This document shows, one piece after another, positions 39,465-57,100 of a stretch of DNA of 64,000 nt. Source of the stretch: Paucidesulfovibrio gracilis DSM 16080 (GTDB taxonomy: Bacteria; Desulfobacterota; Desulfovibrionia; Desulfovibrionales; Desulfovibrionaceae); assembly GCF_900167125.1 (NCBI RefSeq), contig NZ_FUYC01000003.1:347996-411995 (forward strand). The letters run 5' to 3'. A model generated the notes under the pieces. The model searched no databases. It saw nothing but the letters and a program-made list of their open reading frames with translations, and was not told where the DNA came from. The translations under genes and the position numbers were made by a program. Within the stretch, counting starts at the first letter, position 1; each line of letters opens with the position of its first letter.

Positions 39465-39989
39465 CTACATCTGATATTGATATTTTACCGTCACAACCAG
39501 CCGAAACGTGCGGTGACCAAGAAGGGCAGGCCGTTCCACAACACCACTTGCCGCCTGAATGGCCGAGCGGGCCGCATTATCCAGACGTGCATCTCCCGAA
39601 GAACGCACCAAGCGGATGTCACGGAACACATCATCTGCGGTAATGGTAAATACATATTGCACATTCCCTATCAGGCCCGCCACACGCTGTCCGTTGGAAA
39701 AAAATTTTCGTTCTTCAATGGCCCGACGCACTTGGGACAAATACCACTTTTCGGCTTGGACCTGTCGGTCCAACCGAGCATCGCCAGATGCGTCCATTGC
39801 TTCTTCCACCATACGCCCCAAGGTGATGCCCTGGTTCCGAACAGCACGGGCGTCCATGGAACCATCCTCGAAAAATGTAATCTTTTCTGGCGAGTTCCGT
39901 GGTTCGGCAAAAAGGATATCCAACTGAAGAACAAAAAAATGAATACTAAAAGAGATGATGAGGCAAGCAATAACTCGATGTTGTACCAT
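39465..39989 (-). CDS. TonB-family protein
   Basis: 174 residues from the ATG at 39989. One N-terminal membrane helix (VIACLIISFSIHFFVLQLDI), a periplasmic spacer without the usual Pro-rich repeat, and a C-terminal TonB-like domain (YVFTITADDVFRDIRLVRSS, then DNAARSAIQAASG and FRLVVTVKYQYQM). It follows exbB and exbD directly, so it probably transmits proton-motive force to an outer-membrane receptor. No TonB-dependent receptor gene is in the window. Confidence 0.75.
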   Translation of the reverse strand: MVQHRVIACLIISFSIHFFVLQLDILFAEPRNSPEKITFFEDGSMDARAVRNQGITLGRMVEEAMDASGDARLDRQVQAEKWYLSQVRRAIEERKFFSNGQRVAGLIGNVQYVFTITADDVFRDIRLVRSSGDARLDNAARSAIQAASGVVERPALLGHRTFRLVVTVKYQYQM

Positions 39990-39993
39990 GGGA

Positions 39994-40422
39994 TCAGGAA
40001 TCCGCCTCGGGTGATGAGAGGGAGCGTGTGGCAATGACCAAATTCTGGAAGCCATGTTTGCGCACCAGATCAACAAGATCCAGAAATGGTTGGACCTGGG
40101 AATGTGGATCGGCCTTGAGCACTATCTGCCCAGGACGTGCGGATTGCGGCAATGCTGCAGCATGGTCCAGGGCATACCGAATATCCAGCAAAGTTGCTTC
40201 AGCTCCGTCCATGAGTAAGGATCCATCAGCCCGTAATACAATTTCCAAGCATCGGCCGGATATGGATTGGGAGGTTTCTGCCTTTGGCAGCTCCATGTCC
40301 ATACCTTTGAGCGTAAAGACGGCGGAGACGACAAAAAAAATCAATAAAATAAAGACAACATCCAAAAGCGGCGTTATGTCTGGTCCGGTGGTATGACCCG
40401 TCTTGTTCCGAAAACGAATCAC
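39994..40422 (-). CDS. exbD: ExbD/TolR biopolymer transport protein
   Basis: 142 residues from a GTG at 40422 that overlaps the exbB stop (GTGA). N-terminal PDITPLLDVVFILLIFFVVS contains the membrane helix with the conserved Asp. The periplasmic part has LELPKAETSQS (as MELPKAETSQS) and IVLKADPHSQVQPFLDLVDLV. With ExbB it forms the proton channel that drives TonB. Confidence 0.92.
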   Translation of the reverse strand: MIRFRNKTGHTTGPDITPLLDVVFILLIFFVVSAVFTLKGMDMELPKAETSQSISGRCLEIVLRADGSLLMDGAEATLLDIRYALDHAAALPQSARPGQIVLKADPHSQVQPFLDLVDLVRKHGFQNLVIATRSLSSPEADS

Positions 40423-41024
40423 AAAGCATCGTCCTCGTGAAACGCCTCCAGCAAATACGCCGCACCAACCTGCATGGCATGCGCCACTTTTTCTTGTTGG
40501 CGAAGAAACCAACGATGCGCCAGGAGGGTTGGTATGGCTATGGCCAAGCCAGTTGCCGTGGTCAACAGAGCCTGCCAGATACCACCAGCCAACAATGAAA
40601 TATCGACATCGCTTGAAGCGGCAAGCGTAGAGAAAGCGGATATCATGCCGATAACCGTACCGAGCAATCCCATTAACGGAGCAACATTGGAGAGTGTGGA
40701 CAGCAAATCCAGTCCACGATTCAACCGAAACAGTATTTCCTCGCCCGCGGCTTGGGCCGTGGCCTCACGCTGCGACTTGGAGCACTCCTCAAAAAGCAAC
40801 GCCTCAAAAAAAGGGACAAACGCAGGATACCGATCCGCAATGTCACTCGGCAACTGAGCCGCCTTGGAGTCCTGGATATCGTCCCGTAAGGCCGAAAGCA
40901 CCCTCAAGGCGGGAAAGCGAGTGGTAGAGATCACAACAAAGCGCTCAAGAATAACCCCCAAGGCCACTACGGAAACGACAAGCAGGGGCCACATCATTAG
41001 ACCGCCTTGCTGAACAATATTCAT
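40419..41024 (-). CDS. exbB: ExbB/MotA/TolQ proton channel protein
   Basis: 201 residues. Helix 1 WPLLVVSVVALGVILERFVV, a cytoplasmic loop, and the signature helices NVAPLMGLLGTVIGMISAFS and GIWQALLTTATGLAIAIPTLLAH. Starts inside the stop of the CobW-like gene (ATGA), so the two are translated together. Confidence 0.93.
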   Translation of the reverse strand: MNIVQQGGLMMWPLLVVSVVALGVILERFVVISTTRFPALRVLSALRDDIQDSKAAQLPSDIADRYPAFVPFFEALLFEECSKSQREATAQAAGEEILFRLNRGLDLLSTLSNVAPLMGLLGTVIGMISAFSTLAASSDVDISLLAGGIWQALLTTATGLAIAIPTLLAHRWFLRQQEKVAHAMQVGAAYLLEAFHEDDAL

Positions 41025-42847
41025 GCGTATTTTTCCTCAAGTTTTTCCAATGCACCGAGCTTCATGTCTTTCCCAATGGCAACTAAAAAGGATTCCTCGG
41101 CAAAAGGAACACCGAGATCGGACAATTCATATCGACCCGAAACGAATTGAACCACCCGCGCGTTGATAGCATCACGAACCATAACGATCCCTTTAAGGCG
41201 GAAAACATTGGCTGACCCCATTTCTTCCAGAAGCTTCAACAATTCCGACTCGTTCAGAGGAGCAGAAAAAGTGAAGCGCCTGGAAAAAAATCCCTCCATG
41301 CCGTGGTCATGATGGTGCTGAGGTGGTTTGTTGGCTGCTGCTGCGGGCCAAAGCGTTTTTTCCAACGGATCATCGTCATACAAAAGCCCCGGATTGATTA
41401 CTCCGTGAGAAACGTGAACGAGTACGGCTCGGGGGTTTATCTTTTGCAAAATGCCGGCAAGCTCCCGTTGATCCGCTTCGGAAGCCAAATCACATTTGTT
41501 GAGGAGCAGAACATCCGCAGCCTTGACCTGATCACGCCCCACATCACTGGCGGCCAGGATATGCCTAGCGTTGACGGCATCCACCAGCGTGGTGATGGAA
41601 TCCAGGCGGACCAACGGACGAAGTGTTTCCAGTTCATTTAATATATTGAAAGGATTAGCTAGTCCGGTACTTTCAAGCACGATGATTTTGGGATGAAACT
41701 GTTCCTTGAGCTGTGCAACACCTTTTGAAAGATTTCCAGCCAAGGTGCAACAAACGCATCCTTCATCCATTTCAATGATGGAATCATCTCCCTCCAGCAA
41801 TTTCCCATCCACACCGGTCTGCCCAACTTCATTTTGAATGATGGCCACAAGTTCGTCACGAGCGGCATGGTATTCCAGCAACTGATTCAGAAAGGTCGTT
41901 TTCCCTGAACCGAGAAATCCGCTCAATACGATGAGTCGCGGACGAGAATCAAACGCATGTGCGTATTGGGGGCAACGTTGGAGCCGCTGTGCGTCATGCA
42001 CATCCCACAACAGCGCCGTATTGAACGGGGAGGGCATGTGTCGGCGATCAGAAAAAGTCCAAAAAAAATCCTGAAACTGGGAAACGGTCGCTGTGGAGGT
42101 GACACGATCCGTTCCCCAGCTCAGGATATCCGTAAAAAATAGAGAGGTTGAGGCAGAAGAAAAGGATTGTCCGTCTTGTCGAACCATCCGGGCTGTGCCG
42201 GGCCGCTGCCGCCTCTCCAAGAATCGAGGAGGCTCTCCTAAACTATGGGACACAGAAGCAGCCAGGATAAGATATAAATCCAAAGCGAGCTGATGGGCCG
42301 GAATATCCTCTTCGGCCTCCCCAGGAGAGAGAATCCATTGACCATCTTGAGTCCGCATCCCGTCCTGGGCCACCGTAATAATCCGTTCCGGAGCTTCCAG
42401 AACCAAAGATAGCGTTGTTTCCAAATGATCCAGCGCCAGACACACCCGACCAATATGAAACGGAGCGGCCCATGGTAGAACCGCTGAAAAATTACGGACA
42501 CGGTGTCGGTACTCTTCCTGCATCACGGAATGATTGGCAGCGAGCGACATGCATTCCAGGAGTTTTTCATCTGGATCGGGAAAATAAAAAATATCGAATG
42601 ATGCCGAATGGTCCTGACAGGAAGCCTCGTGTGTTTTGGCGCACAGTCCAAACACACCCGGCCGAGTTTGCAACTTCAGCGTCCGGGCCATGGGTCCACG
42701 GGGACAGACAGCCATTCCCTTCCATCCGCTCAAACGCTTGAACGCATCATCTCGGCATGCCGCGAGTAGGCAATTCATCAACATTTCATGCATATCAACA
42801 AATTGGCCGACTTGACGCTGAGGAGGGAGAAGGGCGGAGAGCTGCAT
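41021..42847 (-). CDS. CobW/YjiA-type metallochaperone GTPase with a novel N-terminal half
   Basis: 608 residues. Residues about 303-608 are a complete CobW protein: P-loop GFLGSGKTTFLNQLL (310 on), metal-binding GCVCC (363-367), ESTGLANPFN, NKCD, a His-rich loop HHHDHG near 500, and the C-terminal CobW_C domain. Residues 1-303 match nothing I know; they contain Cys (FGLCAKTHEASC) and a helical repeat-like region. CobW proteins deliver metal ions (Zn, Co). The overlap with exbB suggests a metal-acquisition role, for example for an outer-membrane importer. RBS AGGA lies 10 bases upstream. Confidence 0.85.
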   Translation of the reverse strand: MQLSALLPPQRQVGQFVDMHEMLMNCLLAACRDDAFKRLSGWKGMAVCPRGPMARTLKLQTRPGVFGLCAKTHEASCQDHSASFDIFYFPDPDEKLLECMSLAANHSVMQEEYRHRVRNFSAVLPWAAPFHIGRVCLALDHLETTLSLVLEAPERIITVAQDGMRTQDGQWILSPGEAEEDIPAHQLALDLYLILAASVSHSLGEPPRFLERRQRPGTARMVRQDGQSFSSASTSLFFTDILSWGTDRVTSTATVSQFQDFFWTFSDRRHMPSPFNTALLWDVHDAQRLQRCPQYAHAFDSRPRLIVLSGFLGSGKTTFLNQLLEYHAARDELVAIIQNEVGQTGVDGKLLEGDDSIIEMDEGCVCCTLAGNLSKGVAQLKEQFHPKIIVLESTGLANPFNILNELETLRPLVRLDSITTLVDAVNARHILAASDVGRDQVKAADVLLLNKCDLASEADQRELAGILQKINPRAVLVHVSHGVINPGLLYDDDPLEKTLWPAAAANKPPQHHHDHGMEGFFSRRFTFSAPLNESELLKLLEEMGSANVFRLKGIVMVRDAINARVVQFVSGRYELSDLGVPFAEESFLVAIGKDMKLGALEKLEEKYA

Positions 42848-42915: not shown

Positions 42916-44085
42916 TTAGACGCCGAAAGTGATCTTATCGCCGTTGCCGAGGTAATCCTTCGAAGCGGAGCGGAATCGGGCTGTTCCGCGAACCACTGGA
43001 TATCCAGCCTCAATGAATTTTTTGGCCGTCAGGTGACCGGTACAATGGTTGCAACCAATGCGTTCAAAATCCCACTCACCCAGAGAGATAACCAAGTCGT
43101 CATATTTGGGATCCCAATCCTCGAAGGGTGAGATGTGCAGTCCACCATAGATTCCGTAAAATCTATCCTGGTCGTATTTCAGGTTGGCATAGGCAAAATC
43201 GGCAAACTTGAGCACGCCCTGATGGCAACACCCCGAAACCAGCACCAGTCCCTTATCCTTGATATTAAAGGCCAGAGAGGTTTCACCAAAGACCCGGTTG
43301 ATGATGGGGACGTTGAACTTCAACAAAGCCACACCCGGAGCGATTTCGGTCACGGGCTGGTTGACGATAACAGGTTCCCCTTTATACCCGGAATCCTTGA
43401 TATACTGTAACCCCTCCTTATAAAATCCATCATGGACATACAGCGGGATGCGGTTGTCATACTTCATGGTCACGGGCAGTCCCCAGAAGTGATCCCAGTG
43501 CTCGTGAGAGATGAACAGGGCTTCGATCTGCTGGTCGCGGAGCATCTGGTCCACACCCTCGCGTTTGAAGCAATCATTCATCCAGGAATAAGACCACCCG
43601 GTATCCAGCAGGTATTTGTGCATGGAACCGTCGAGCGCCTCAACTTCGATGAGGCAGGAATACCCGCCGGGGTTTTCCGGGTGCAAAGCAAGCTTTTTCT
43701 GAATATCCCAGGCTTTTTCAATGTCATGAGGGATCAGATCTTTGATTGTGGAGATGCCGTCCTCATATGACCCCATAGCCGACCCCTTGCCGTTGGCAAA
43801 AGGTGCCCAGTTCAGGGTGTATTGGTTCACCAACAGCCCACCAGCCTCATGGATGTCCCCGATCAGGTGGGCATTGTTGAACCAGCTGGTTTCCGAGATG
43901 TTGGTGATGCGAATGCTACGGCAGGCTCCAAAATCATGTTGCTTGCGCTGCACTTCCGGCAGACGGTCGTACGACCACGGGGTATAGGAATACATGCCCA
44001 TTCCGGCAAACGCCCCGACCAAAGCACCGGTGGCGGCGCCTTTCACGAAGTCGCGTCGACTCAGGTTCTTTTTTTCGTTGCTCAT
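42916..44085 (-). CDS. Tat-exported metallo-beta-lactamase-fold protein
   Basis: 389 residues. A twin-arginine signal (NLSRRDFVKGAATGALVGAF) with a hydrophobic core to about residue 30. The MBL fold is complete: HEHWDH at 194-199, SGCCHQG at 284-290 (as the GCSHxG motif of the RFAP-synthase-like subgroup), GGLH at 314-317 and NHCTGH at 346-351. Zinc or iron binding is expected. The subgroup includes beta-RFAP synthase relatives, but an exported member has no obvious pterin substrate. RBS GGAGC. It is the last gene of the gntR operon; 24 bases separate it from the membrane protein gene. Confidence 0.85.
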   Translation of the reverse strand: MSNEKKNLSRRDFVKGAATGALVGAFAGMGMYSYTPWSYDRLPEVQRKQHDFGACRSIRITNISETSWFNNAHLIGDIHEAGGLLVNQYTLNWAPFANGKGSAMGSYEDGISTIKDLIPHDIEKAWDIQKKLALHPENPGGYSCLIEVEALDGSMHKYLLDTGWSYSWMNDCFKREGVDQMLRDQQIEALFISHEHWDHFWGLPVTMKYDNRIPLYVHDGFYKEGLQYIKDSGYKGEPVIVNQPVTEIAPGVALLKFNVPIINRVFGETSLAFNIKDKGLVLVSGCCHQGVLKFADFAYANLKYDQDRFYGIYGGLHISPFEDWDPKYDDLVISLGEWDFERIGCNHCTGHLTAKKFIEAGYPVVRGTARFRSASKDYLGNGDKITFGV

Positions 44086-44108
44086 TTTTTAGCTCCTTAT
44101 TCCCCTGC

Positions 44109-45512
44109 TTAGTCGATGATAGTGAAGTTCGCGCCGATCCAAGGCAGAACGTTGATCACGGCAAAATACGCGAGAGCGCCTATGGCCAATCCGATCAAAA
44201 GTCCCTTGGCGATGCCAGGAGTCCACTTCACGTCATGGGCGACAATTTCTTCATGAACTTCATTCAACTCTTCCGGAGATTTGGATTCAGCCTTCCACCC
44301 CGGCCAACCATCCATGAACCAATAGTTGATCAGGAAGATATTGATGAGCCAAATCATTGGAATCATGGGGAACTGCTGGGGATGCGAGAAGCCCTTTTGT
44401 GTCCCCAGGAAGAGGTGGGATGTCTTGTAGTAGATGACGTAAACCAGGACGGCTCCTGCCGCAGTGATCAACGTCCGCAAAAAGACGTTCACCGGACGAC
44501 TGAACTTCGTGGGCCAATTGTTGCAGTAGAAGCTCAGGTACAACGTGGGTACAAGCCAAAAAATGGCCATTTCCCCGACATGCAACCAACGCCAATCCGG
44601 TGCCATAAGGCGGCGGGTTCCACGAATAGTTTCGCCCCAAACAAGATCTTGCGCATAATACAGGAAGAAGCACAGGGCCACGGCAATGCCGATGATACCG
44701 AAGAACGATGCCGTGCGGCGCAAGGCATTATTTTTTATTAAGTTAAAGGGGTATCGTTCCCAAATGGTCTCATACAACCAAACAATCACGGTGCAGCACA
44801 TAATCCAGGCGATATGGAAGTTGCCGGACACGGTGTTGGCAAAGTCTTCCCAATAGGGAGGACAAATAGCTGTGAATTTCTGCCAAGGGTAGAACAAGAT
44901 GGCCATATGGGAGTGCATGGTCAGGAAGAAGACTATCATGCTGAAAAAGAAGGTCACCAACACAATGGTGATACCTCTTGCAGGTTGGGTCAATTTCTGC
45001 CAGGGCGCATTTTCGCAGGCCACCACCCAGCTGGGGGACAGCCAGGAAGCAATGGCCGCAAACATCATAATCGCCTCGGCCGCATATTCAATGGAATAGA
45101 AATCCGTAATACCCATGGCCATAAGACGGTCTGGATCAAAATAGGCAATACCGAAGTTGCCAAGAATCTCGACAAAAAAGCCCTTGATGAGCAGAACCAT
45201 GGCCGCGACACTTACCAAAGTGAGCACAGCCCCTTTAACCAAGGGGTGGGTCTTGTTCAACCAGGAACGTCGGAACGGCCAGAAGTCAAAGATATATGCG
45301 ACCCAGATGAACAAAATCAAAAGCCAGCGGCAGACCATGTAGCCCACATAGGGGGTATACATACGCATAAGACCCCGTGGGTCTTGAAAAATCCACCAAG
45401 TAGCATAAAAAAAAGCCAAAATGAGGACGGTGTTGACCAATGCCGGAATAGGTCCACTCCAGCGTTTGACCAACTTCCTGCTCTCAAGATAGCTGAAGTC
45501 GTGACTGTCCAT
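44109..45512 (-). CDS. Multi-helix membrane protein, function unknown
   Basis: 467 residues with about 11 membrane helices by reading, rich in Trp, Phe and Tyr, with His and Cys in the membrane part (FFLTMHSHMAILFYPW, NFHIAWIMCCTVIVWLY, RWLHVGEMAIFWLVPTLYL). No ATP-binding, redox or transporter signature I recognise. It resembles neither the TRAP DctM nor the common major-facilitator layout. The N- and C-termini are charged. It is in tight order between the small RREFF protein and the Tat MBL protein, so the two are likely partners. RBS GGAG six bases before the ATG. Confidence 0.8.
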   Translation of the reverse strand: MDSHDFSYLESRKLVKRWSGPIPALVNTVLILAFFYATWWIFQDPRGLMRMYTPYVGYMVCRWLLILFIWVAYIFDFWPFRRSWLNKTHPLVKGAVLTLVSVAAMVLLIKGFFVEILGNFGIAYFDPDRLMAMGITDFYSIEYAAEAIMMFAAIASWLSPSWVVACENAPWQKLTQPARGITIVLVTFFFSMIVFFLTMHSHMAILFYPWQKFTAICPPYWEDFANTVSGNFHIAWIMCCTVIVWLYETIWERYPFNLIKNNALRRTASFFGIIGIAVALCFFLYYAQDLVWGETIRGTRRLMAPDWRWLHVGEMAIFWLVPTLYLSFYCNNWPTKFSRPVNVFLRTLITAAGAVLVYVIYYKTSHLFLGTQKGFSHPQQFPMIPMIWLINIFLINYWFMDGWPGWKAESKSPEELNEVHEEIVAHDVKWTPGIAKGLLIGLAIGALAYFAVINVLPWIGANFTIID

Positions 45513-45546
45513 TTCAAACTCCTTCGCGAACGGGGAGGGAGGGTGA

Positions 45547-45801
45547 TCAATCCTCGGTCTCCAAACGCTCTCTCTTCATGGGTGATGACGTCGGTTCCGG
45601 GTCGGGAACCAGCTCCTCCAATCGCCCGGGCGAAACAGTCGCCGGATCAATACCCAAAGCCATGGCGCGCAAAAACCGTTGCTCTTCCGTAAGGCGAACC
45701 GATTTGGAAGTCTGGGCAACGGAGTGGGGCTGCGTCGCTCCGGAGTCGTCAGAATCTCCGAGGTTGGGGACGATGCGGCGAAAAAATTCTCTACGATTCA
45801 T
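45547..45801 (-). CDS. Small RREFF protein of the gntR operon
   Basis: 84 residues beginning MNRREFFRRIVPNLGDSDDS. RREFF recalls a twin-arginine motif but no hydrophobic core follows, so it is not a normal Tat signal. A second half reads EEQRFLRAMALGIDPATVSPG, followed by a charged tail. No family recognised. RBS AGGAATA; gap of 16 bases after gntR and 34 bases before the membrane protein gene. Confidence 0.7.
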   Translation of the reverse strand: MNRREFFRRIVPNLGDSDDSGATQPHSVAQTSKSVRLTEEQRFLRAMALGIDPATVSPGRLEELVPDPEPTSSPMKRERLETED

Positions 45802-45817
45802 GGTCTATTCCTGCCGA

Positions 45818-46501
45818 TTACAACACATCTTCCGGAAGGATCAGTTTGGAATAGAGCCGGATGCATTCACCAGCAGCTTTGAACGCCTCTTCACTTTTAC
45901 CGCTGCGTAGCGCATTGAACAGCTCAACGTGATAAGCAAAGAGGGAGTCGGTTTGCACTTCCGCCAGGCCGATTCCGGTAAACTCCAAATTGTCCGCGGC
46001 AGCCAACAGCTCATTGAAGAGCAAAATTAAATAGTCATTTTGTGTCGAACTGGCGAGAAGCAGGAAAAAAGAGATGTACTCCCTATTAAACGAGCGGACT
46101 TCAAAATTGAATACAGCTTCTCCCAATCGGGCCGTTGCTTTTTCAAGGCCGGCAACCGCTTCCGGCGAAAGTGTACCTGACTGCTCTCGGACCAGAGCCG
46201 GAACAAGCAATGAAAGCGTCTGCAGTAACTGGCGTATGGCTTGTTGCGATTTTCTGTTTCGTAGCTGCTCCCAGCTGATGCGACCCTCTTTGCTCTTCAA
46301 ATAGCAGCCGCTTTTTTCACGAATTTCCACATATCCCATGGTTTCGAGATTGCAGAGCACTTCTCGGATAGTATTTCGGCTGGTAACAAACATTTCGGCC
46401 AAACGTCGCTCTCCGGGAATACGGTCTCCAATGGAAAACCTGTTTCCTTGAAGCATTTCGATCATCCGCTGACATAGTATGGGGCGTTGTGCTGTAGCCA
46501 T
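45818..46501 (-). CDS. GntR/FadR-family transcription regulator
   Basis: 227 residues. N-terminal winged helix (about 8-75) with IGDRIPGERRLAEMFVTSRN, then TIREVLCNLETMGYVEIREK. The C-terminal part is helical (FCD-like), with REYISFFLLLASSTQNDYLI and YHVELFNALRSGKSEEAFKA, as in FadR, PdhR and LldR relatives that sense acids or carboxylates. Three matching operator-like sites lie upstream; one sits next to the start codon. It leads the small protein - membrane protein - MBL operon. Confidence 0.9.
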   Translation of the reverse strand: MATAQRPILCQRMIEMLQGNRFSIGDRIPGERRLAEMFVTSRNTIREVLCNLETMGYVEIREKSGCYLKSKEGRISWEQLRNRKSQQAIRQLLQTLSLLVPALVREQSGTLSPEAVAGLEKATARLGEAVFNFEVRSFNREYISFFLLLASSTQNDYLILLFNELLAAADNLEFTGIGLAEVQTDSLFAYHVELFNALRSGKSEEAFKAAGECIRLYSKLILPEDVL

Positions 46502-46503
46502 TT

Positions 46504-46514
46504 TGGTCCAACCA
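46504..46514. promoter_or_regulatory. GntR operator-like site 1
   Basis: TGGTCCAACCA, a perfect TGGT-N3-ACCA dyad of the kind bound by FadR/PdhR/LldR-type GntR proteins. Two bases upstream of the gntR ATG, so binding should block initiation (autorepression). Confidence 0.7.
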
Positions 46515-46571: not shown

Positions 46572-46608
46572 CGTAAGGCAAGGTTTTTTGCACGTTCCTT
46601 CTCAAAAC

Positions 46609-46619
46609 TGGACCAACCA
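46609..46619. promoter_or_regulatory. GntR operator-like site 2
   Basis: TGGACCAACCA, one base off the TGGT-N3-ACCA dyad, inside CTGG-N5-CCAG. It is 105 bases from site 1, ten helical turns. Confidence 0.55.
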
Positions 46620-46919: not shown

Positions 46920-48200
46920 TCACGAAAGACAGCGTTCGAGATGATCCAAAAAATCAGGATACAACTCCTGCATCGGAGCCGGGGCGTCAGGATCATAATT
47001 GCCTGCTCCCCGGGAACAAAAAATCAAAACTTTGGTCAAGACTCCATCATCAAAAAAGGGCTGAGCATAGTAGGAATGAATTCCCCTGGGGATGAACAAA
47101 GCCCAGTCAATCGCTTTGATGCTTTTCGATGTCTCCATGACCACGTGGTTGCTCAAGTTGAAACGAACTATATTTTCGGCAATCGATCCTTCGTAAAGAT
47201 GGCTCCGATTTTCAGGAACACTTTCGAACGGCTCACCAGCACCTGTGACCAGTACTTGATTCTGCGCTATGAAAATTCTGGAAAGCATAATGGCGTCAGT
47301 AGGGGATTCCGGGGGCAGGGCCGCAAGCATGGCCTCAAGAAGTTGCTTCACGGTGCGACATTTTTTCATCGCCGCACGAACTTCACGCACTGAAACAGAT
47401 TCATTGCCCCGAACAGGGATACCCTTGCATGCCTGGCAACTATTCAGGTGCGACAAGGTGACCCACAGCACGTTTTCATCATCTCTGGCTATGCCCTCGA
47501 TATGTGCGGAACACTGATGATGTCTCCCCATGGCGTCACTGACCTTGATTTCCCCACACCATGCGTCGGAAAAGATAAGGCCTTCGTAAATTTCGAACAA
47601 TCTGTTCTTGGGATTGTTCTGAAGCAGCATATCCAAATCGAGGGAGGTGATTTGCTGCGATGAATAGCCCAACAACTGAAGCGCTGCTTGATTGGCACGA
47701 AATACGCGGCGATCCGAAAAACGCACCAGAAGGACCGGATCAGGTACCAAGTCTATTTTTTCGGACAATCCGGGACGACCTTCGGTGGAAAGAATCGTGT
47801 TCACATGGGCGGTAATATCCAACAGCAACCCAACGGAACAAGAGGGATTTTCCGGGTCCGGCATGGCAATGATCTTGAACCAGCCCATACTGCCGTTTTC
47901 CAACCGCATGCGGAAGGTGCAAGCCGTGGCATGGCGGTTCCGGACCTGATTATAGCAATGGTGAAAGCGTTGACGATCCTCCTTCGGAATGCGCTCCTCG
48001 GCCTGCACCGGATTTTGCAACACGGCTCTGGCGTATTCACCTAAAGACGGAATCGTATAATTATTCAAGAAGGTTATTTCGTTTCCGACAATATCAATTC
48101 GCCAAACAACGGCGGGAAGCGCTTCAATATAGGCGGCAAGACAATGCTCCTTCCCTGAAAGCACGGTCGATGACATATCCACTCTAAAATTCTTTGCCAT
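46920..48200 (-). CDS. PAS-domain sensory protein without a visible output domain
   Basis: 426 residues. Two PAS-like domains: about 25-135 (AYIEALPAVVWRIDIVGNEI ... MRLENGSMGWFKIIAMPDPE) and about 150-265 (PDPVLLVRFSDRRVFRANQA, LQLLGYSSQQITS). The C-terminal 150 residues look GAF-like (VRAAMKKCRTVKQLLEAMLA ... PRGIHSYYAQPFFDDGVLTK). There is no HisKA, GGDEF, EAL or HTH part. It lies between the TRAP genes and the gntR operon on the same strand and may sense a compound for one of them. Confidence 0.78.
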   Translation of the reverse strand: MAKNFRVDMSSTVLSGKEHCLAAYIEALPAVVWRIDIVGNEITFLNNYTIPSLGEYARAVLQNPVQAEERIPKEDRQRFHHCYNQVRNRHATACTFRMRLENGSMGWFKIIAMPDPENPSCSVGLLLDITAHVNTILSTEGRPGLSEKIDLVPDPVLLVRFSDRRVFRANQAALQLLGYSSQQITSLDLDMLLQNNPKNRLFEIYEGLIFSDAWCGEIKVSDAMGRHHQCSAHIEGIARDDENVLWVTLSHLNSCQACKGIPVRGNESVSVREVRAAMKKCRTVKQLLEAMLAALPPESPTDAIMLSRIFIAQNQVLVTGAGEPFESVPENRSHLYEGSIAENIVRFNLSNHVVMETSKSIKAIDWALFIPRGIHSYYAQPFFDDGVLTKVLIFCSRGAGNYDPDAPAPMQELYPDFLDHLERCLS

Positions 48201-48322
48201 TTACGGTCGGTCCTCAATGTTGCTGTTGCTCACTTTTTCTTCAATCGCAGGATAGCCCGTATTCCCAGCCCTTGGCAAATTCCCTTGAATGCTGGTCCCA
48301 CCAGGAGACAAAACAATAGCAA

Positions 48323-48391: not shown

Positions 48392-49705
48392 CTAATACAT
48401 AAGACCCGGCAACCAAAGAATGATCTGCGGAAACACGAACAATAGAGAGATCCCCAAGGCAATGGCCGCCAGAAACGGACCAATGCCTCGGAATATCGAC
48501 TCCAGCCGAATTCCGGTTCGCAATTGTTGCGTAATCCCATAGACCACATAAACATTGATACCAACAGGCGGCGTAATGACACCCATTTCCGTGACGAGCA
48601 CAATGATGATCCCGAACCAGATCGGATCATACCCTAGACTCTGCACCACAGGGTAAAAGACCGGAATGGTGAGCATGATCAAAGCCAGGGAATCCATGAA
48701 ACAGCCGCCGATAAAGTAAATCAGGACAATCACGGCCATCACGGCAAACGCAGGCAAGTCAAACCCTGCCACCCAGGAGGCGATATCAAAGGGGATACGC
48801 GTCACCGCCAAAAATTTGCCGAAAACCACGGCTCCGGCAATAAGAAAGAGCACCATGCAGGATGTTCGCAACGTCTCATGCAGCGACTTAACCAAGGCCT
48901 TCCAGGTCAGACGGCCGCGAAAAAAAGAAAGCAGGCTGATGCCGATCACTCCTACGGAGGCTGCTTCCGTAGGAGTAAACCAACCTTGAAACATACCGCC
49001 AATAACCAATAGAAACACTATCAATGTGTCCGAAAGGCCAGACAGAGAGGCCAATCGTTGCCTCCAGGAGCACCGTTCCCCTTTGGGTCCCTGTTCCGGC
49101 GAACGCCGACAAACAAGCCAGACGGCACCGATGAAAAGCAGGGTGAGCAGCAATGCCGGAAAAATGCCTGCCACAAATAATTCGCCAATGGATTGCTCGG
49201 TGAGCACACCATAAACGATGAGCACGACACTAGGGGGCATGATCATGCCTAATCCACCGCCGGAAGCGACGGACCCGGCGGCCAGGGAATCCGCATAGCC
49301 AAAACGCTTCATCTCGGGAATGCCCACAGTGGCCATGGTGGCCGCCGTGGCTGGACTTGATCCGCAGATTGCCCCGAATCCAGTGCATGCCGTTACAGTC
49401 GCCATAGCAAGCCCACCGTTCACATGGCCGAAAAAACGGTATCCGGTATCATAGAGCTTTCGGCTAATGCCACAGTTGAAAGCAATCTGTCCCATGAGGA
49501 TGAACAGTGGAATGGTGCTTAAATCATAGGAGGCAAATGCGGAATAAATATTTCGGGATAAAAGGTTCAGTCCGCCTTTGGGGGAGATCAAAAGACTGAA
49601 GCCCACAAACCCAACCAGCGTCATCACGTAGGCAACAGGCATGCGTGTCATGAACAGCACGAGCATGAACGCAATGCCCAGAATGCCGACAAGAGTGGGA
49701 TCCAT
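48392..49705 (-). CDS. dctM: TRAP transporter large permease DctM
   Basis: 437 residues from the ATG at 49705 with GGAG upstream. Hydrophobic throughout, about 12 helices, with the DctM marks RMPVAYVMTLVGFVGFSLLI, CTGFGAICGSSPATAATMAT, PPSVVLIVYGVLTEQSIGEL and FIGGCFMDSLALIMLTIPVF. It forms the Na+-driven permease with DctQ. Last of the dctPQM set; only two bases separate it from dctQ. Confidence 0.92.
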   Translation of the reverse strand: MDPTLVGILGIAFMLVLFMTRMPVAYVMTLVGFVGFSLLISPKGGLNLLSRNIYSAFASYDLSTIPLFILMGQIAFNCGISRKLYDTGYRFFGHVNGGLAMATVTACTGFGAICGSSPATAATMATVGIPEMKRFGYADSLAAGSVASGGGLGMIMPPSVVLIVYGVLTEQSIGELFVAGIFPALLLTLLFIGAVWLVCRRSPEQGPKGERCSWRQRLASLSGLSDTLIVFLLVIGGMFQGWFTPTEAASVGVIGISLLSFFRGRLTWKALVKSLHETLRTSCMVLFLIAGAVVFGKFLAVTRIPFDIASWVAGFDLPAFAVMAVIVLIYFIGGCFMDSLALIMLTIPVFYPVVQSLGYDPIWFGIIIVLVTEMGVITPPVGINVYVVYGITQQLRTGIRLESIFRGIGPFLAAIALGISLLFVFPQIILWLPGLMY

Positions 49706-49707
49706 GA

Positions 49708-50205
49708 TTACTCCTGACGTGTTTCGGGTGAGGCGGTAAACCATGTTACCACGTCCCGCACCAAATGGAGGGTGAAGATCAGAAAACCGAAGGCAAGCAC
49801 AAACACGACGAGATATTCGGGAAAACCGAGGTTCATGGAACGGACCCCGGACGTTTGCATGGTCAGGCCGTAATCAACCATCCGCCAGGCGACTACGGCA
49901 AAAAGTCCCAATGCTGCTGACGTGGTGATCAGGTGGATGATGTCACGGACCTTTTTCGGCAAGAATCGGACAAAAATCTCCACACCAATATGGCTTCGAT
50001 GCCAGTGGGCTTCGGGGAGGCTGAGACCGACAACGAGTACGGCAAGCATGGTCACGATTTCTTCGGAACCGAAGAGAGGGGAGTCCCAAAACCGCCCCAC
50101 AACATCGGTTCCCGTGACTAGCGCCATAGCGCAAAGAGCTGTTGCGGCCACAGCGCGCATCACTTTTCGCATACCAGACAATGCGGAAAACAACGATTGC
50201 AGCAT
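49708..50205 (-). CDS. dctQ: TRAP transporter small permease DctQ
   Basis: 165 residues from the ATG at 50205. Four helices (AVAATALCAMALVTGTDVVG, IVTMLAVLVVGLSLPEAHWH, ITTSAALGLFAVVAWRMV, LVVFVLAFGFLIFTLHLV) with the conserved WHRSHIGVEIFVRFLPKKVR loop of DctQ. Confidence 0.88.
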   Translation of the reverse strand: MLQSLFSALSGMRKVMRAVAATALCAMALVTGTDVVGRFWDSPLFGSEEIVTMLAVLVVGLSLPEAHWHRSHIGVEIFVRFLPKKVRDIIHLITTSAALGLFAVVAWRMVDYGLTMQTSGVRSMNLGFPEYLVVFVLAFGFLIFTLHLVRDVVTWFTASPETRQE

Positions 50206-50246
50206 GGAACCTATTCCTTCCAATGTATATCCGTATGAACAAGATA

Positions 50247-50270
50247 CGGGCAGACCCAAAAGTCTGCCCG
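50247..50270 (-). other. Intercistronic hairpin between dctP and dctQ
   Basis: CGGGCAGAC (50247-50255) pairs with GTCTGCCCG (50262-50270), loop of six. Placed right after the dctP stop. Hairpins here commonly protect the binding-protein mRNA so that more DctP than permease is made; that role is inferred. Confidence 0.65.
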
Positions 50271-50293
50271 CTTCAAATTAAAAGCAGCAACGC

Positions 50294-51304
50294 TTAACGC
50301 AGCTCTTGGAGCGCGTCGCGGGTAAAACGTAAAACAGCGTCTCCATCCACTCCCCGGGCGGACACTTCATCCACGTATGTACGGAGCAGGGGAGCGGCAG
50401 CATTTTGCCAACGCTCAGCTTCCTCAGCAGCAAGCGGAACAATCTGATTACCTTGCTCAAGAAAAGCTGCTCGACCAACCTTGTCCGCCTCATCCCAGGC
50501 CTGTCCGTGCTTGGCGATCCACTCGGCATTAACTTCCTGGATAGCTTTCCGCACGTCGTCCGGCAGGGATTCCCAGCGGTCCTTGTTCATGACCACAAAA
50601 AAAGTCGTGGTGTATCCAGTGGAGTAGCTTTCGGTCATGTAGTCCACGACCTCGGCCATTTTCCACCCTTTGTTGGTTTCAACGGGATACATACCGCCAT
50701 CGACCACGCCTTTTTGGATGCTTTGATACGCCTCGGGCATGGATTGCGCCACGGGAGTCCCGCCAAGAGCTTGAACGAGTTGAGCACTGTTTCCAGTTGC
50801 CCTGAGCTTGAGTCCTTTGAGCTGCTCCAGGCGGGTGACCGAAATTTCCCGAGTATGCAAAAGACCCGGACCATGAGCGTTGAAATACATGACCTGCACA
50901 TCCTGCAGTTCCTGCGGTTGAAAATGCTCATACACGCTGTTGGCGACCTTGGTGGCCTGCATCCCCGAGGTGTATCCCAAGGGTAAATCCACAGCAGCCA
51001 TGACCGGGAATCGACCTCGGGAGTAGGCCAGGGCGGAAAAGCCGATGTCTGAGATACCCTCTACCACGCCGTCATAGCATTGTTTTGCCTTTGTCAGCGT
51101 GCCACCAGGATAGTAATCAATACGCACCTGACCGTCAGTACGGGCTTCAACCTCCCGACACCATTGCTCCGCAAGCTGTGACTGCACATGGGTTGGAGGG
51201 AAAAAACAACTGTAACTCAGGCGAAACTCACTGGCGTGCGTGGGCAGCACCCATAAGGACAACAAAACAGCGAGGCATCCTGTCAAAAGGGTACGGGGTC
51301 GCAT
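50294..51304 (-). CDS. dctP: TRAP transporter solute-binding protein DctP
   Basis: 336 residues from the ATG at 51304 with GGAG upstream. Signal peptide (LLTGCLAVLLSLWVLPTHAS). The mature part starts FRLSYSCFFPPTHVQSQLAE, and the LKGLKLRATGNSAQLVQALG stretch includes the Arg that usually holds the ligand carboxylate. Ligand unknown; an organic acid is expected for the family. Unusual FF and Cys (YSCFFPP) near the site differ from typical C4-dicarboxylate binders. Confidence 0.9.
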   Translation of the reverse strand: MRPRTLLTGCLAVLLSLWVLPTHASEFRLSYSCFFPPTHVQSQLAEQWCREVEARTDGQVRIDYYPGGTLTKAKQCYDGVVEGISDIGFSALAYSRGRFPVMAAVDLPLGYTSGMQATKVANSVYEHFQPQELQDVQVMYFNAHGPGLLHTREISVTRLEQLKGLKLRATGNSAQLVQALGGTPVAQSMPEAYQSIQKGVVDGGMYPVETNKGWKMAEVVDYMTESYSTGYTTTFFVVMNKDRWESLPDDVRKAIQEVNAEWIAKHGQAWDEADKVGRAAFLEQGNQIVPLAAEEAERWQNAAAPLLRTYVDEVSARGVDGDAVLRFTRDALQELR

Positions 51305-51306
51305 GA

Positions 51307-51942
51307 TCACTCCTTACATTCGGGCGTTCGGGCCGGGAAGCCCAGTTGATCGGACTCAGGAAAGCAGTGCGCCCGGGCAAGAAGCAGGGCAGCCCGGCGA
51401 ATGTCTTCACGGTCCAGCACATTGGTTTGTAGAACGTTTTGAATCAAAAAACCTTCGAACAGCGCGGTATTGAGAGAACCAATCTTCTCAGGCGGCACAT
51501 CGGTACAAACAAAATCTCCCAACAGTTTGGAAAAGATATCATTTGACAACCTGTACTTGCTCCGATTCAGCTCTGTCTGAAGTCGTTCATCACGAGAAGC
51601 ATGAATCGTAAACTCCAAAAAGACCTTGGACCAGTTCATATCATCCATAATTGATTCAAGAAAATCCCATATAACGTGAAAAACTTCTTCAAACGATGAA
51701 GCCTTTTGAATCTTTTTTGAACGATCACGACGGTATTGGTCCATCTTGCGTTCTAAAATTTCCAAAAAAATATCGTCTTTACCCGGCCAGTGGCTGTAAA
51801 AACTCCCCTTGGCATAGCCGGCAGCCTTGGTGATCTCGGAAATGGTCGTGGCGGCAAATCCTTTTTCACCAAACAAACGCATGGCGCAGACCAACAGCTC
51901 TTCTTTGGTCTGACGACTTTTTTCCTGCTGCCTGCGTGCCAT
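51307..51942 (-). CDS. TetR-family regulator
   Basis: 211 residues. N-terminal HTH (ATTISEITKAAGYAKGSFYS, then HWPGKDDIFLEIL) in the TetR order; helical C-terminal ligand domain. It is the first gene of the dctPQM run; dctP starts three bases after its stop. Two copies of a GGTCA-N5-TGACC dyad overlap its promoter, which points to autorepression and control of the transporter. Confidence 0.9.
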   Translation of the reverse strand: MARRQQEKSRQTKEELLVCAMRLFGEKGFAATTISEITKAAGYAKGSFYSHWPGKDDIFLEILERKMDQYRRDRSKKIQKASSFEEVFHVIWDFLESIMDDMNWSKVFLEFTIHASRDERLQTELNRSKYRLSNDIFSKLLGDFVCTDVPPEKIGSLNTALFEGFLIQNVLQTNVLDREDIRRAALLLARAHCFPESDQLGFPARTPECKE

Positions 51943-52625: not shown

Positions 52626-53351
52626 TCAAGCAGGTTTTTCATAAGAATTCGCTAAAAGTAATGTAAGATAGGTGGGGTCTTCAACAAGGTTTTCAATTCC
52701 TCGACAAATTTTCTCTCGCTCCAAACCAATGCGACTTGCATACACGCAGTCATGCGCCATGTTATTGTGTCGCAACTGGTCGCGTATGACTGTAAAATTC
52801 TTATACGCCTTGAGAATTACAAAATTTCCCTTTTGCGACAACGTCTCGGCAAGAGCGTCTTCCGACATGGTCCCCGCAAGAATGTGCAAAGGCTGCTCTC
52901 CTTCAGCCAGAATTGTTTGCGTCAGTGCTGCGGCCTGCTGGAAAGAAGTAATGCCGGGAATAATCTCCACAGGGTAATCCGGGTACGCACGGCGCAAGGT
53001 CCGCAAAATGTACCCAACCGTGCTATACAACAGCGGATCCCCCAACGTAACAAGAACAACGTCCTCTCCTTTGTCCAGGCACTGCACCAACTTGTGGGTA
53101 TTTTCTTCCCAGGCATGCTGCAACACTTCGACATCATTCGTCATTGGGAAACGAAGCCGGCGCACCTCAACACCTTCTCGCAGATGCGGACGCATAATTC
53201 CCTCCGCAACGGAAAATCCGTTTTTGCTGGAGGAACTTGCAAAGATATGCTTTACGCGACGTAAAACCTGCACAGCCTTCAACGTCAACAAATCCGGATC
53301 GCCAGGGCCGACACCGATACCGTACAAAGTTCCTTTGGATATATTGGTCAT
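52626..53351 (-). CDS. cobI: Precorrin-2/cobalt-factor-II C20-methyltransferase
   Basis: 241 residues. Start TLYGIGVGPGDPDLLTLKAV (SAM/corrin methyltransferase loop), then VVLVTLGDPLLYSTVGYILR and EIIPGITSFQQAAALTQ. Fits CbiL/CobI, which adds the C20 methyl group. In anaerobes the substrate is cobalt-factor II. RBS GGAG; last gene of the cobalamin operon, starting just past the btuF stop. Confidence 0.9.
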   Translation of the reverse strand: MTNISKGTLYGIGVGPGDPDLLTLKAVQVLRRVKHIFASSSSKNGFSVAEGIMRPHLREGVEVRRLRFPMTNDVEVLQHAWEENTHKLVQCLDKGEDVVLVTLGDPLLYSTVGYILRTLRRAYPDYPVEIIPGITSFQQAAALTQTILAEGEQPLHILAGTMSEDALAETLSQKGNFVILKAYKNFTVIRDQLRHNNMAHDCVYASRIGLEREKICRGIENLVEDPTYLTLLLANSYEKPA

Positions 53352-53353
53352 TA

Positions 53354-54334
53354 TTATTTCAACTCCATTGCTTGATTTCTTTCATAAAATTCAGGGAATA
53401 AATCAGGATACAGAATCCCGGCCAAACGTTCTACGGCATCGACGTTCCGAGGCCCAGGACGGGAAAACATCTGTTCATCCACCTGAAAAACTTGTCCGGC
53501 TTGCACGGCAGGAAGCGAAGCAAAACGGGATGAACTCCGTACGTCCACAGGAACGGGATTCATCGGCCCTTGCTGTGACAGGTAAACCTCAGGAGCAAGA
53601 CGAAGAAGCTCCTCTTCACTGAGGCGTACCAATCGAGAGTGGAGGGTCACACAGTTTTTACCGCCCGCATGCAAAATAATGTCGTTTACGATGGATTTCT
53701 GCCCGGCAGCCAACAAATTTCCGGACCGAACTTCAAAAAAGACTTGAGGCGAACCATTTTTCGGCAGACGTTGCCGCACCGCCTCAAGACGCCGACGCAT
53801 CTGCGCAACCAATGCTTTCGCCTCTTTCCCTGCTCCTGTGAGATCCCCAATTTTGTTTATCATCGCAAAAAGCTGCACAAAATCAGACACATGAAAAACA
53901 GCAACTGGAATGCCAAACCGTTCCAAGGCTTGAACACTTTGCAATGCCGCGCTTCTTCCTCCCATTTGCAACACAAGGTCCGGCTGCATCCCGACAATGC
54001 GTTCCACATTGGGGCGCATGTGCGTCCCGATGCAAGGAAGCTCACAAATTTGGGGCGGAACTCGATCCGCCTTGGTTCGAGCTACAATCCGATCACCAAG
54101 ATTCATGCCGTAAAGAATTTCATTGAAGGCACCATAAAGCGCGACAACACGCCGGGCAGGACGCTCCAACAGCACGACTTGTCCCCGATCGTCCGTAATT
54201 CTGATGCTGTCAGCATGGACTGTGATCACTGGAACGATCATGCTCCAGCAGACCAGAACGAACAGGACTCGGCATGGCAAAGGCCTGGGGGGTTCCCGTT
54301 CCGGGATGAACACCGATCTTGATTGTCGTTTCAT
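53354..54334 (-). CDS. BtuF-like periplasmic corrinoid/metal-binding protein
   Basis: 326 residues from the ATG at 54334. An extended signal peptide with a hydrophobic core VLFVLVCWSMIVPVITVHAD. The mature part has ITDDRGQVVLLERPARRVVA and the clamshell halves (GIGTHMRP-like CIGTHMRPNVERIVGMQPDL, DEQMFSRPGPRNVDAVERLA) of class III binding proteins. Likely delivers cobalamin, a precursor or cobalt chelate to BtuC. It overlaps the end of the ATPase gene by about 125 bases. Confidence 0.85.
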   Translation of the reverse strand: MKRQSRSVFIPEREPPRPLPCRVLFVLVCWSMIVPVITVHADSIRITDDRGQVVLLERPARRVVALYGAFNEILYGMNLGDRIVARTKADRVPPQICELPCIGTHMRPNVERIVGMQPDLVLQMGGRSAALQSVQALERFGIPVAVFHVSDFVQLFAMINKIGDLTGAGKEAKALVAQMRRRLEAVRQRLPKNGSPQVFFEVRSGNLLAAGQKSIVNDIILHAGGKNCVTLHSRLVRLSEEELLRLAPEVYLSQQGPMNPVPVDVRSSSRFASLPAVQAGQVFQVDEQMFSRPGPRNVDAVERLAGILYPDLFPEFYERNQAMELK

Positions 54335-55061
54335 AAAGCTCACTCAGGGTGGATTCGGAAAAAAGAGGCTCCACCGGCCCATCATAGGCTACCCGACCAT
54401 TCTTCAAAAAAATGATCCGGGTACAATACAGTGCCGCCAGATTGATATCATGCAAGGCCACAACCGTAGTTGCGGCCTCCAGCTCGCGGACCAAATCAAA
54501 ACAGCGTACTCGCCAAGCCATATCCATGGCAGAAAATGCCTCATCAAGAAGTAACAGCCCTGCCTGCTGCGCCAAGGCACGTGCCAACAGGACACGCTGC
54601 AGTTCACCGCCGGACAGTCCGTTCACAGTACGATTTTGCAATTCAACCGTTCCCGTGGCTTCCAAAGCATGATCAACAACTGCCTCGTCCTCAGCATCGG
54701 CATGCCCCCAAAACGGGAGATGGGCATGCCGCCCCATGGCGACCATGGTTCTAACGCGTAATCCAAAGAGTGTTTCCACACGTTGCGGCACCACGGCGCA
54801 CAACCGGGCAACCCTGGCTGGCGACAAATCTTCGATTGGGATCCCGCTAAGAAACGCCTGACCGTTCCGCGCTTTCAACGCACCACAAATGCCAGATAAA
54901 AGAGTACTTTTTCCTGATCCATTGGGACCGAGCAAGGCAACAACCTCGCCTACGGCCAGCGAGACATTCACCCCATGGAGAACGCAAGAACGTGAACCAT
55001 AGCCCAGCGACCAATCGTTGCAGGTGAATACCGGCGGGTTGTGGGGGATGGTCGAGGTCAT
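54210..55061 (-). CDS. BtuD/FecE-like ABC transporter ATPase
   Basis: 283 residues from the ATG at 55061, which overlaps the btuC stop (ATGA) and has GGGGGGA upstream. Walker A LLGPNGSGKSTLLSG, Q-loop VVPQRVETLFGLRV, signature LSGGELQRVLLARALAQ, Walker B GLLLLDEAFSAMD, switch His in ALHDINLA. The last 40 residues run into the btuF gene; the family usually ends near the GTPQAF stretch, so this tail is longer than usual. Confidence 0.92.
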   Translation of the reverse strand: MTSTIPHNPPVFTCNDWSLGYGSRSCVLHGVNVSLAVGEVVALLGPNGSGKSTLLSGICGALKARNGQAFLSGIPIEDLSPARVARLCAVVPQRVETLFGLRVRTMVAMGRHAHLPFWGHADAEDEAVVDHALEATGTVELQNRTVNGLSGGELQRVLLARALAQQAGLLLLDEAFSAMDMAWRVRCFDLVRELEAATTVVALHDINLAALYCTRIIFLKNGRVAYDGPVEPLFSESTLSELYETTIKIGVHPGTGTPQAFAMPSPVRSGLLEHDRSSDHSPC

Positions 55062-56101: not shown

Positions 56102-56119
56102 ATCTTGCCTTCTCAGAGG

Positions 56120-57025: not shown

Positions 57026-57064
57026 GAATCCCTCCCAACGAGAGGGGGCTGTTAAGGAGAACAT

Positions 57065-57100
57065 ACAAAAAATCCCTTGCGGGGCAATGCACGCAAGGGG
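57065..57100 (-). terminator. Intrinsic terminator of the cobalamin riboswitch
   Basis: CCCTTGCG / CGCAAGGG stem (plus 57092-57099 and 57074-57081), followed in the minus direction by ATTTTTTG. Between the riboswitch and the cbiK start: the expression platform for transcription termination when cobalamin is bound. Confidence 0.85.

What the first reader, a model, noticed from the sequence alone, without database searches (positions are those of the whole stretch)
42916..46501. Candidate undescribed system: gntR - small RREFF protein - 11-helix membrane protein - Tat-exported MBL hydrolase
Four genes in tight order, one regulator with its own operators, one membrane protein with no recognised family, and an exported metallo-hydrolase with all MBL metal motifs. 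The export of an RFAP-synthase-like MBL protein together with a Trp/His-rich membrane protein suggests periplasmic processing of a substrate and transport or electron transfer through the membrane protein. The GntR/FadR type suggests control by an organic acid.
Basis: inference. Interest (0 to 1): 0.8.

Follow-up and report, generated by a model that had tools for sequence, protein, structure and literature searches.

The report
New periplasmic hydrolase-and-carrier gene module
Nine neighbouring genes, found in the same order in distantly related bacteria, encode an enzyme with an export signal, a membrane protein that matches no family in the databases searched here, and their helpers; together they likely cut a small compound just outside the inner membrane and would carry the product into the cell.

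Summary
In detail: four genes with 11 predicted membrane helices, a complete MBL metal motif, a Tat-type signal and gntR operators. The unit is larger: PAS - GntR - RRxFF protein - membrane protein (MEM) - MBL - CobW fusion - ExbB - ExbD - TonB, all nine co-linear in 11 of 40 loci. MBL follows MEM in 38 of 38 loci with enough sequence and the CobW fusion in 34 of 35, across five phyla by record titles. The CobW N-domain and MEM share 50 of 199 genomes (MEM alone 1, domain alone 2). MEM passes no Pfam cut-off and has no NCBIfam match, PDB sequence match or significant Foldseek/PDB hit (best E 0.044). Its superfamily has three branches: two travel with MBL; the third lies beside acyl-CoA genes in 13 of 14 loci (11 without self-hits), beside MBL in 0 of 14.

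Best explanation (inferred): CobW metallates MBL before Tat export, MBL releases a small carboxylate in the periplasm and MEM imports it. Confidence in this mechanism is 0.3; that the module is real, and undescribed in the papers searched, is much surer. The TRAP neighbours and the source label 'AAT amino acid transporter' are not supported.

The parts
48293..48303 (.). TGGTCCCACCA (TGGTN3ACCA) 93 bp upstream of the PAS gene start; possible further GntR site, not shown to be conserved
   Evidence: few sites outside the gntR upstream region in relatives
46920..48200 (-). PAS-PAS protein with an unassigned C-terminal part (looks GAF-like by eye; no kinase or HTH domain matched); likely sensor
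   Evidence: PF13426 33.2 bits, PF08447 32.7 bits; co-directional upstream of gntR in 19 of 25 GntR-bearing genome-contig loci
46773..46783 (.). Palindromic site TGGTTGGACCA (TGGTN3ACCA), distal GntR operator
   Evidence: similar spacing (about -285 from gntR) in close relatives
46608..46619 (.). Imperfect operator copy CTGGACCAACCA
   Evidence: a perfect copy at the equivalent place (about -120) in several relatives
46504..46514 (.). Palindromic site TGGTCCAACCA, proximal GntR operator at the gntR start
45818..46501 (-). GntR/FadR-type (FCD) regulator of this module
   Evidence: PF00392 and PF07729 over cut-off; the only two exact TGGTCCAACCA sites of the genome lie here; the looser TGGTN3ACCA occurs at 29 places in the genome, these two being the only pair within 1 kb
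45547..45801 (-). Small RRxFF protein (84 aa): N-terminal RREFF, C-terminal helix motif with G-I-D-P; no hydrophobic core right behind the RR
   Evidence: 13 of 40 loci by tblastn, divergent versions by eye in others; hydropathy
44109..45512 (-). Membrane protein MEM (467 aa, 11 TM), new superfamily; weak sign of five tandem two-helix units, each with a conserved Pro beside an aromatic residue at the predicted inner face
   Evidence: relatives
42916..44085 (-). MBL-fold metallo-hydrolase with Tat-type signal (SRRDFVKG)
41021..42847 (-). CobW/COG0523 GTPase (about residues 300-608) fused to an N-terminal domain (1-295) that follows MEM; likely metallochaperone for the MBL
   Evidence: PF02492 148.7 bits, PF07683 39.5 bits; YjiA match; co-occurrence of the N-domain with MEM
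40419..41024 (-). ExbB-type proton channel
   Evidence: PF01618 98.2 bits; co-linear in 12 of 40 loci
39994..40512 (-). ExbD
   Evidence: PF02472 80 bits; start codon not verified (ORF overlaps ExbB)
39465..40076 (-). TonB-type protein
   Evidence: PF13103 33.4 bits; co-linear in 12 of 40 loci

Best explanation
This is a conserved gene module around an MBL-fold hydrolase with a Tat signal and a membrane protein that matches no family searched, and it likely works as a hydrolysis-and-uptake route: the hydrolase would cut a substrate in the periplasm and the membrane protein would carry the product, probably a small carboxylate, into the cell.

Steps: (1) GntR sits on TGGTN3ACCA sites before its own gene (sites and their conservation shown; binding and ligand inferred) and would release them when its ligand, probably an organic acid, is present; the PAS protein likely adds a second input. 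(2) The CobW-type GTPase, through its N-terminal domain, would load the metal ions into the MBL in the cytosol (inferred from co-occurrence; the metal-handling role of CobW proteins is published). (3) The folded, metal-bearing MBL would go out through Tat (signal shown, export inferred). (4) In the Desulfovibrionales and alphaproteobacterial versions ExbB/ExbD/TonB would energise entry of the substrate through an outer-membrane receptor encoded elsewhere (inferred). (5) The MBL would hydrolyse the substrate, and MEM would take up the product (inferred from the fixed MEM-MBL pairing, from the predicted periplasmic lean of conservation in the window's own branch, and from the distant MEM branch beside acyl-CoA genes). 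(6) The small RRxFF protein would stay at the cytosolic face as an assembly or export partner (inferred).
For: MEM-MBL pairing: 38 of 38 genome-contig loci with enough downstream sequence (the other 2 of 40 end at the contig edge); CobW directly downstream in 34 of 35, the 35th having it 3.9 kb away on the other strand. Nine-gene order in 11 of 40 loci. CobW N-domain in 52 and MEM in 51 of 199 genomes of the order, both in 50; the six genomes with two first-branch MEM genes have two N-domain genes. RRx[FLV] signal in 52 of 52 first-branch MBLs and RRxFLK in 8 of 8 second-branch MBLs; metal residues kept in both. Operators. In first-branch sequences (22, A2) the predicted periplasmic loops average 0.84 identity, inner loops 0.72. 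Third MEM branch beside acyl-CoA ligase, CoA transferase, methylmalonyl-CoA mutase, thiolase or acyl-CoA dehydrogenase genes in 13 of 14 loci, against 1 of 62 for the other branches (Pfam identity of examples); the branches are related (hhalign E 2.9e-59, 2.6e-15, 5.3e-15). Published logic: the Tat-exported MncA binds its metal in the cytosol before export, and CobW releases Co or Zn on nucleotide hydrolysis (PMC8867077, passages).
Against: No catabolic enzymes sit in the module, so the fate of a product is unknown. No outer-membrane receptor lies in it; the one receptor barrel over cut-off in this genome is on another contig with ExbB-type genes of its own within 10-15 kb. TonB/ExbBD, GntR and the RRxFF protein were not found in the 13 campylobacterotal loci, so they are not essential to the core. 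Second-branch pairs show no CobW although their MBL also bears an RR signal. In the wider alignment (59 sequences, A1) periplasmic and inner loops are equally conserved (0.53 and 0.50), so the periplasmic lean holds for the first branch only. No fold match to any transporter. The acyl-CoA link concerns relatives of 22-25% identity, and the query proteins came from those same loci: without self-hits it is 11 of 14. No substrate evidence.
Confidence: 0.3

Rival explanations
1. Redox module: MEM is a membrane electron carrier (quinone or haem site) and the MBL protein is its periplasmic electron-transfer or oxidative partner, sensed by the PAS protein or, in Campylobacterota, by a PAS histidine kinase.
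For: Three of the four best Foldseek rows are alternative complex III subunit C, a membrane protein of a quinol-oxidising complex (function recalled); H202, H233, H311 and E314 kept in 90% or more of 59 sequences and many Trp/Tyr; many record titles name anaerobes or microaerobes (physiology recalled).
Against: Foldseek E 0.044, TM 0.16, not significant; no cytochrome or Fe-S partner among the nine genes; third-branch neighbours include non-redox CoA ligases and mutases.
Confidence: 0.2
2. Detoxification or signal removal: the exported MBL destroys a harmful or signalling molecule in the periplasm, and MEM anchors it or exports the product; GntR senses the molecule.
For: Self-contained cassette without catabolic genes; present in different phyla with close sequence (81% MEM identity to Rhodobium), as expected for a transferred protective cassette; MBL proteins include lactonases (recalled; one such paper, passage only).
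Against: The third branch fits uptake better; ExbBD-TonB would not be needed; I saw no recognisable resistance or toxin gene kept beside it (by eye, outputs, both cut).
Confidence: 0.21
3. Metal-supply module: CobW and TonB are the core, for scarce Zn or Co, and the MBL and MEM release or import a metal chelate.
For: CobW fusion and TonB/ExbBD in the same unit; several papers on zinc-starvation regulons mention COG0523 and TonB together (search listing).
Against: Regulator is GntR/FCD, not a known metal regulator; the MEM-MBL pair exists without CobW and TonB; no metal receptor or ABC transporter in the conserved unit.
Confidence: 0.13
4. Independent ordinary genes that happen to be neighbours.
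For: Each of MBL, CobW, GntR and TonB is by itself common.
Against: Order, co-occurrence, copy number and correlated divergence (distance r 0.75-0.87) kept across phyla.
Confidence: 0.02

Closest known systems
COG1237-type MBL hydrolases (PDB 7dck, 2p4z, 3h3e; COG assignment recalled)
   Same: HxHxDH, GCxHxG, GGxH and HCTG motifs; best sequence relatives of known structure
   Different: Carries a Tat signal; paired with MEM in 38 of 38 loci with sequence; substrate unknown
COG0523/CobW metallochaperone GTPases (YjiA 1nij/4ixm)
   Same: GTPase and CobW_C domains, CxCC motif
   Different: Fused to a 295-residue N-terminal domain that in this order is found in 52 of 199 genomes, 50 of them with MEM
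ExbB-ExbD-TonB energisation systems
   Same: All three families matched
   Different: No receptor in the unit; sits at the end of the hydrolase/membrane-protein operon
FadR/FCD regulators of the GntR family
   Same: Domains and TGGTN3ACCA palindrome (operator type recalled)
   Different: Usual FCD metal ligands (recalled) not conserved; no other gene known to be controlled
Alternative complex III subunit C / NrfD-type membrane proteins
   Same: Best, non-significant Foldseek rows
   Different: No sequence or significant fold match
AAT family amino acid transporters (JGI label for many homologues)
   Same: Name given by a source
   Different: No amino-acid permease profile among the Pfam rows for 59 members

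Membership tests
MBL-fold metallo-hydrolases | Pfam Lactamase_B/Lactamase_B_2 over curated cut-off | tested here: met
   27.7 vs 27 and 24.0 vs 22.7 bits
MBL-fold metallo-hydrolases | HxHxDH and downstream His ligands for two metals | tested here: met
   H194 H196 D198 H199 H288 H347 in at least 95% of 55 sequences and in the 8 second-branch ones
MBL-fold metallo-hydrolases | Hydrolase activity and bound metal | not testable with these tools
   needs protein
Tat substrates (MBL) | Tat signal model match, RRxF | tested here: met
   TIGR01409 23.3 vs 16.7; PF10518 18.4, below its 22.7; 52 of 52 relatives with RRx[FLV]
Tat substrates (small RRxFF protein) | Hydrophobic core following the RR motif | tested here: not met
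   Sequence right after RREFF is polar/charged; best 15-residue hydropathy window starts at residue 43; no TAT_signal match
COG0523/CobW GTPases | CobW GTPase domain, CobW_C, CxCC | tested here: met
   PF02492, PF07683; C364, C366, C367 invariant in 39
COG0523/CobW GTPases | Delivers metal to a client | not testable with these tools
   client inferred from context
GntR, FadR/FCD group | GntR HTH plus FCD domain | tested here: met
GntR, FadR/FCD group | Palindromic operator before own gene, conserved | tested here: met
   21 of 23, 18 of 19, 12 of 17 loci; binding itself not tested
GntR, FadR/FCD group | Metal-ligand residues of FCD (ligand pattern recalled) | tested here: inconclusive
   one His (H191) is commonest at its place in 72% of 39 sequences; no full ligand set
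TonB-ExbB-ExbD systems | Three protein families present | tested here: met
TonB-ExbB-ExbD systems | Partner TonB-dependent receptor in the unit | tested here: not met
   one receptor barrel over cut-off in the genome, on another contig
AAT/APC amino-acid permeases (for MEM) | Amino-acid permease profile match | tested here: not met
   not among the 6 Pfam rows at E<=0.1 for 59 members
Ureide permease (for MEM) | PF07168 over cut-off | tested here: not met
   12.5 vs 27 bits for the window protein; 5 of 59 members listed, best E 0.0033
ActC/NrfD-type membrane proteins (for MEM) | Significant fold match | tested here: inconclusive

The most novel reading that the evidence does not exclude
MEM founds a new superfamily of carboxylate carriers built from five tandem two-helix hairpins, each capped by a proline-aromatic motif at the inner face. 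One branch serves anaerobic fatty-acid activation (acyl-CoA ligase, methylmalonyl-CoA mutase). Two branches have been coupled to a Tat-exported hydrolase, the window's branch with its own dedicated metallochaperone and TonB, forming a complete outer-membrane-to-cytosol processing route that spread as a cassette between phyla.
Probability: 0.25. Interest if true: 0.8.

Novelty: categorically new. Interest (0 to 1): 0.63.

Why it matters
A membrane-protein superfamily that passes no Pfam or NCBIfam cut-off and has no PDB relative, present in five phyla by record titles and fixed beside an exported hydrolase and a CobW-type GTPase, is a whole uncharacterised pathway rather than one unknown gene. 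If the reading is right it gives a cytosolic-metallation-then-Tat-export route with its chaperone encoded next to the client, which makes a standing question (what are the clients of COG0523 GTPases?) directly testable with one gene pair. It would also point to a carboxylate carrier of acyl-CoA-using anaerobes through the third branch.

Tried and rejected
TRAP transporter (DctPQM 48392-51310) and TetR as parts of the module: rejected, since Dct hits occur in only 2 of the 40 genome-contig loci (L004, L035). A single-operon regulon: the exact 11-mer occurs only here and one-mismatch sites are fewer than for the reversed control (61 in all against 103), but the looser TGGTN3ACCA occurs at 29 places in the genome (reversed control 104); the 27 other places were not read, so other targets are not excluded. 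TonB partner: the receptor on contig C5 has ExbB-type genes of its own in the region, so no link was found. Known family for MEM: Pfam, NCBIfam, PDB sequence, Foldseek and VIA-align all without a significant match (weak sub-cut-off rows such as Ureide_permease and, for a third-branch member, Abhydrolase_9_N at 19.2 against 27 bits). This does not show that the fold is new: no library of predicted cellular structures was on hand. CobW N-terminal domain: the 50 Foldseek rows shown are, by title, P-loop GTPase-type proteins; the domain was not folded or searched alone (structure cap reached). Acetone-degradation paper PMC7888143 (a listing hit on 'beta-lactamase superfamily II'): passages read, nothing on this module; PMC5320481: one passage. 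Library searches for a published description; none of the listed papers, by title and start of abstract, describes it; only open-licence PMC papers are held.

Counts to read with care: gene calls are from my own ORF heuristic and start codons are unverified; loci are not corrected for relatedness (some are near-identical, and the sets overlap); searches used only loci of 9 kb or more and left out L085 by hand; one search put L146 with the first branch, with the second; small RRxFF-like proteins in divergent loci were recognised by eye, and some start KR, RK or RRxI instead; the repeat test compared blocks of one alignment, forward better than reversed in 10 of 10 pairs but with probabilities of only 2-73%.


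Full report
What is there. On the minus strand the window holds, in order of transcription, a PAS protein (46920-48200), a gap with palindromic sites, GntR (45818-46501), an 84-residue RREFF protein (45547-45801), a 467-residue membrane protein called MEM here (44109-45512), an MBL protein with Tat signal (42916-44085), a 608-residue CobW fusion (41021-42847), ExbB, ExbD and TonB (39465-41024). TRAP and TetR genes further upstream (48392-51942) are neighbours in this genome but not part of the conserved unit.

Conservation. A scan of genome contigs with MEM gave 40 loci at 52-88% identity, by record titles in Desulfovibrionales, other sulfate reducers, Alphaproteobacteria (Rhodobium, Breoghania, Oleispirillum, Pseudovibrio and others), Campylobacterota, Bacteroidales and a Deferribacteraceae MAG. 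MBL lies directly downstream in 38 of 38 loci that have the sequence; the other two end at the contig edge. The CobW fusion follows in 34 of 35; in L037 it lies 3.9 kb away on the other strand. GntR precedes in 25 of 40. Of the 15 without it, 13 are campylobacterotal by title; 12 of these have a PAS histidine kinase upstream and 10 also a response regulator of one family (one pair checked by Pfam: HATPase_c with PAS, and Response_reg with Trans_reg_C). ExbB/ExbD/TonB are co-linear in 12 of 40, and all nine genes by tblastn in 11 of 40. In two other Desulfovibrionales loci the TonB trio stands before gntR (L081, L082). Among 199 genomes of the order MEM occurs in 51 and the CobW N-terminal domain in 52. 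Both lists share 50 genomes; MEM alone is G008, whose gene belongs to the third branch; the domain alone is in G041 and G129. The six genomes with two first-branch MEM genes (G058, G147, G156, G167, G177, G197) have two N-domain genes. Pairwise distances of MEM, MBL, CobW and GntR are correlated (r 0.75-0.87). The parts move and duplicate together.

Regulation. TGGTN3ACCA sites stand before gntR at similar distances (about -15, -120 and -285) in close relatives, in 21 of 23, 18 of 19 and 12 of 17 loci of three partly overlapping sets, with 4, 0 and 3 sites in the rest of the same sequence. In the own genome the exact 11-mer TGGTCCAACCA occurs only here. The looser palindrome occurs at 29 places, fewer than its reversed control (104); the two before gntR are the only pair within 1 kb, and a third lies 93 bp upstream of the PAS gene. 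So the regulator most likely controls mainly this unit, but other targets are not excluded. The residues usual for metal-binding FCD domains (recalled) are not conserved; the ligand is unknown.

Three branches. First branch: as in the window. Second branch (mostly 26-31% identity): MBL - MEM - small RRxFF-like protein, in six of eight loci read with a further protein of 240-335 residues, no CobW seen. In two loci (L097, L098) it stands behind what look like a PAS histidine kinase with an ABC_sub_bind domain and a sigma-54 response regulator (Pfam check of the L098 pair). Third branch (about 22-25% identity; hhalign E 2.6e-15 to the first and 5.3e-15 to the second branch): MBL in 0 of 14 loci, but acyl-CoA ligase, CoA transferase, methylmalonyl-CoA or related mutase with MeaB, thiolase or acyl-CoA dehydrogenase genes within 5.5 kb in 13 of 14 (Pfam check of examples), against 1 of 62 loci of the other two branches. 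The gene queries were taken from the third-branch loci; leaving self-hits out it is 11 of 14.

The hydrolase. MBL keeps a complete metal motif in both branches that have it and is closest by sequence to 7dck, 2p4z and 3h3e. The RR signal is kept in 52 of 52 first-branch and 8 of 8 second-branch proteins. The small protein shares an RRxFF start but has no hydrophobic core right after it, so it is probably not exported.

Mechanism. A Tat signal on a metalloenzyme next to a COG0523 GTPase suggests metallation in the cytosol before export: this is the published logic for MncA, and GTP-loaded CobW is reported to release Co or Zn on nucleotide hydrolysis (PMC8867077, passages read). The client assignment here is inference from co-occurrence. 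MEM is most simply a carrier for the product of MBL, and the third branch points to carboxylates. Shown: gene order, co-occurrence, motifs, operators, relationship of the branches. Inferred: metal loading, export, hydrolysis, transport, the ligand, and the TonB role. Against it: no catabolic genes, no receptor in the unit, no CobW seen in the second branch, no transporter fold match, periplasmic lean of conservation in one branch only.

Verdict. A real, widespread and, by the searches made, undescribed system whose central membrane protein belongs to a new superfamily. The module is well supported; the specific function is an informed guess.

Noticed in passing
L169 with L152 (G465 contig C14): One genome carries a first-branch MEM-MBL pair and a third-branch MEM gene about 15 kb apart on the same contig.
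   Followed up: no
L147:269-10307: A second-branch MBL-MEM-RRxFF cluster lies downstream of an ABC ATPase with CBS domain (Pfam; glycine-betaine type by eye) and a B12-binding-like protein just below its Pfam cut-off.
   Followed up: partly
L097:10875-11603 and relatives in L098, L143-L146: An unassigned 240-335 residue protein accompanies the second-branch MBL-MEM pair; the two versions scanned (L098, L143) match no Pfam family over its cut-off and no NCBIfam family.
   Followed up: partly
L013: In a Breoghania MAG the gntR, MEM and MBL frames are broken into pieces in my gene calls; sequencing errors or decay.
   Followed up: no
window 52626-57286: A tetrapyrrole methylase, a periplasmic binding protein with ABC genes (the latter by eye) and CbiK lie upstream, an apparent cobalamin or metal region not seen as part of the conserved unit.
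   Followed up: partly
G000 contig C5 (L111, L112): A TonB-dependent receptor, a second receptor-like gene by eye, and ExbB-type genes in the same 30 kb.
   Followed up: partly
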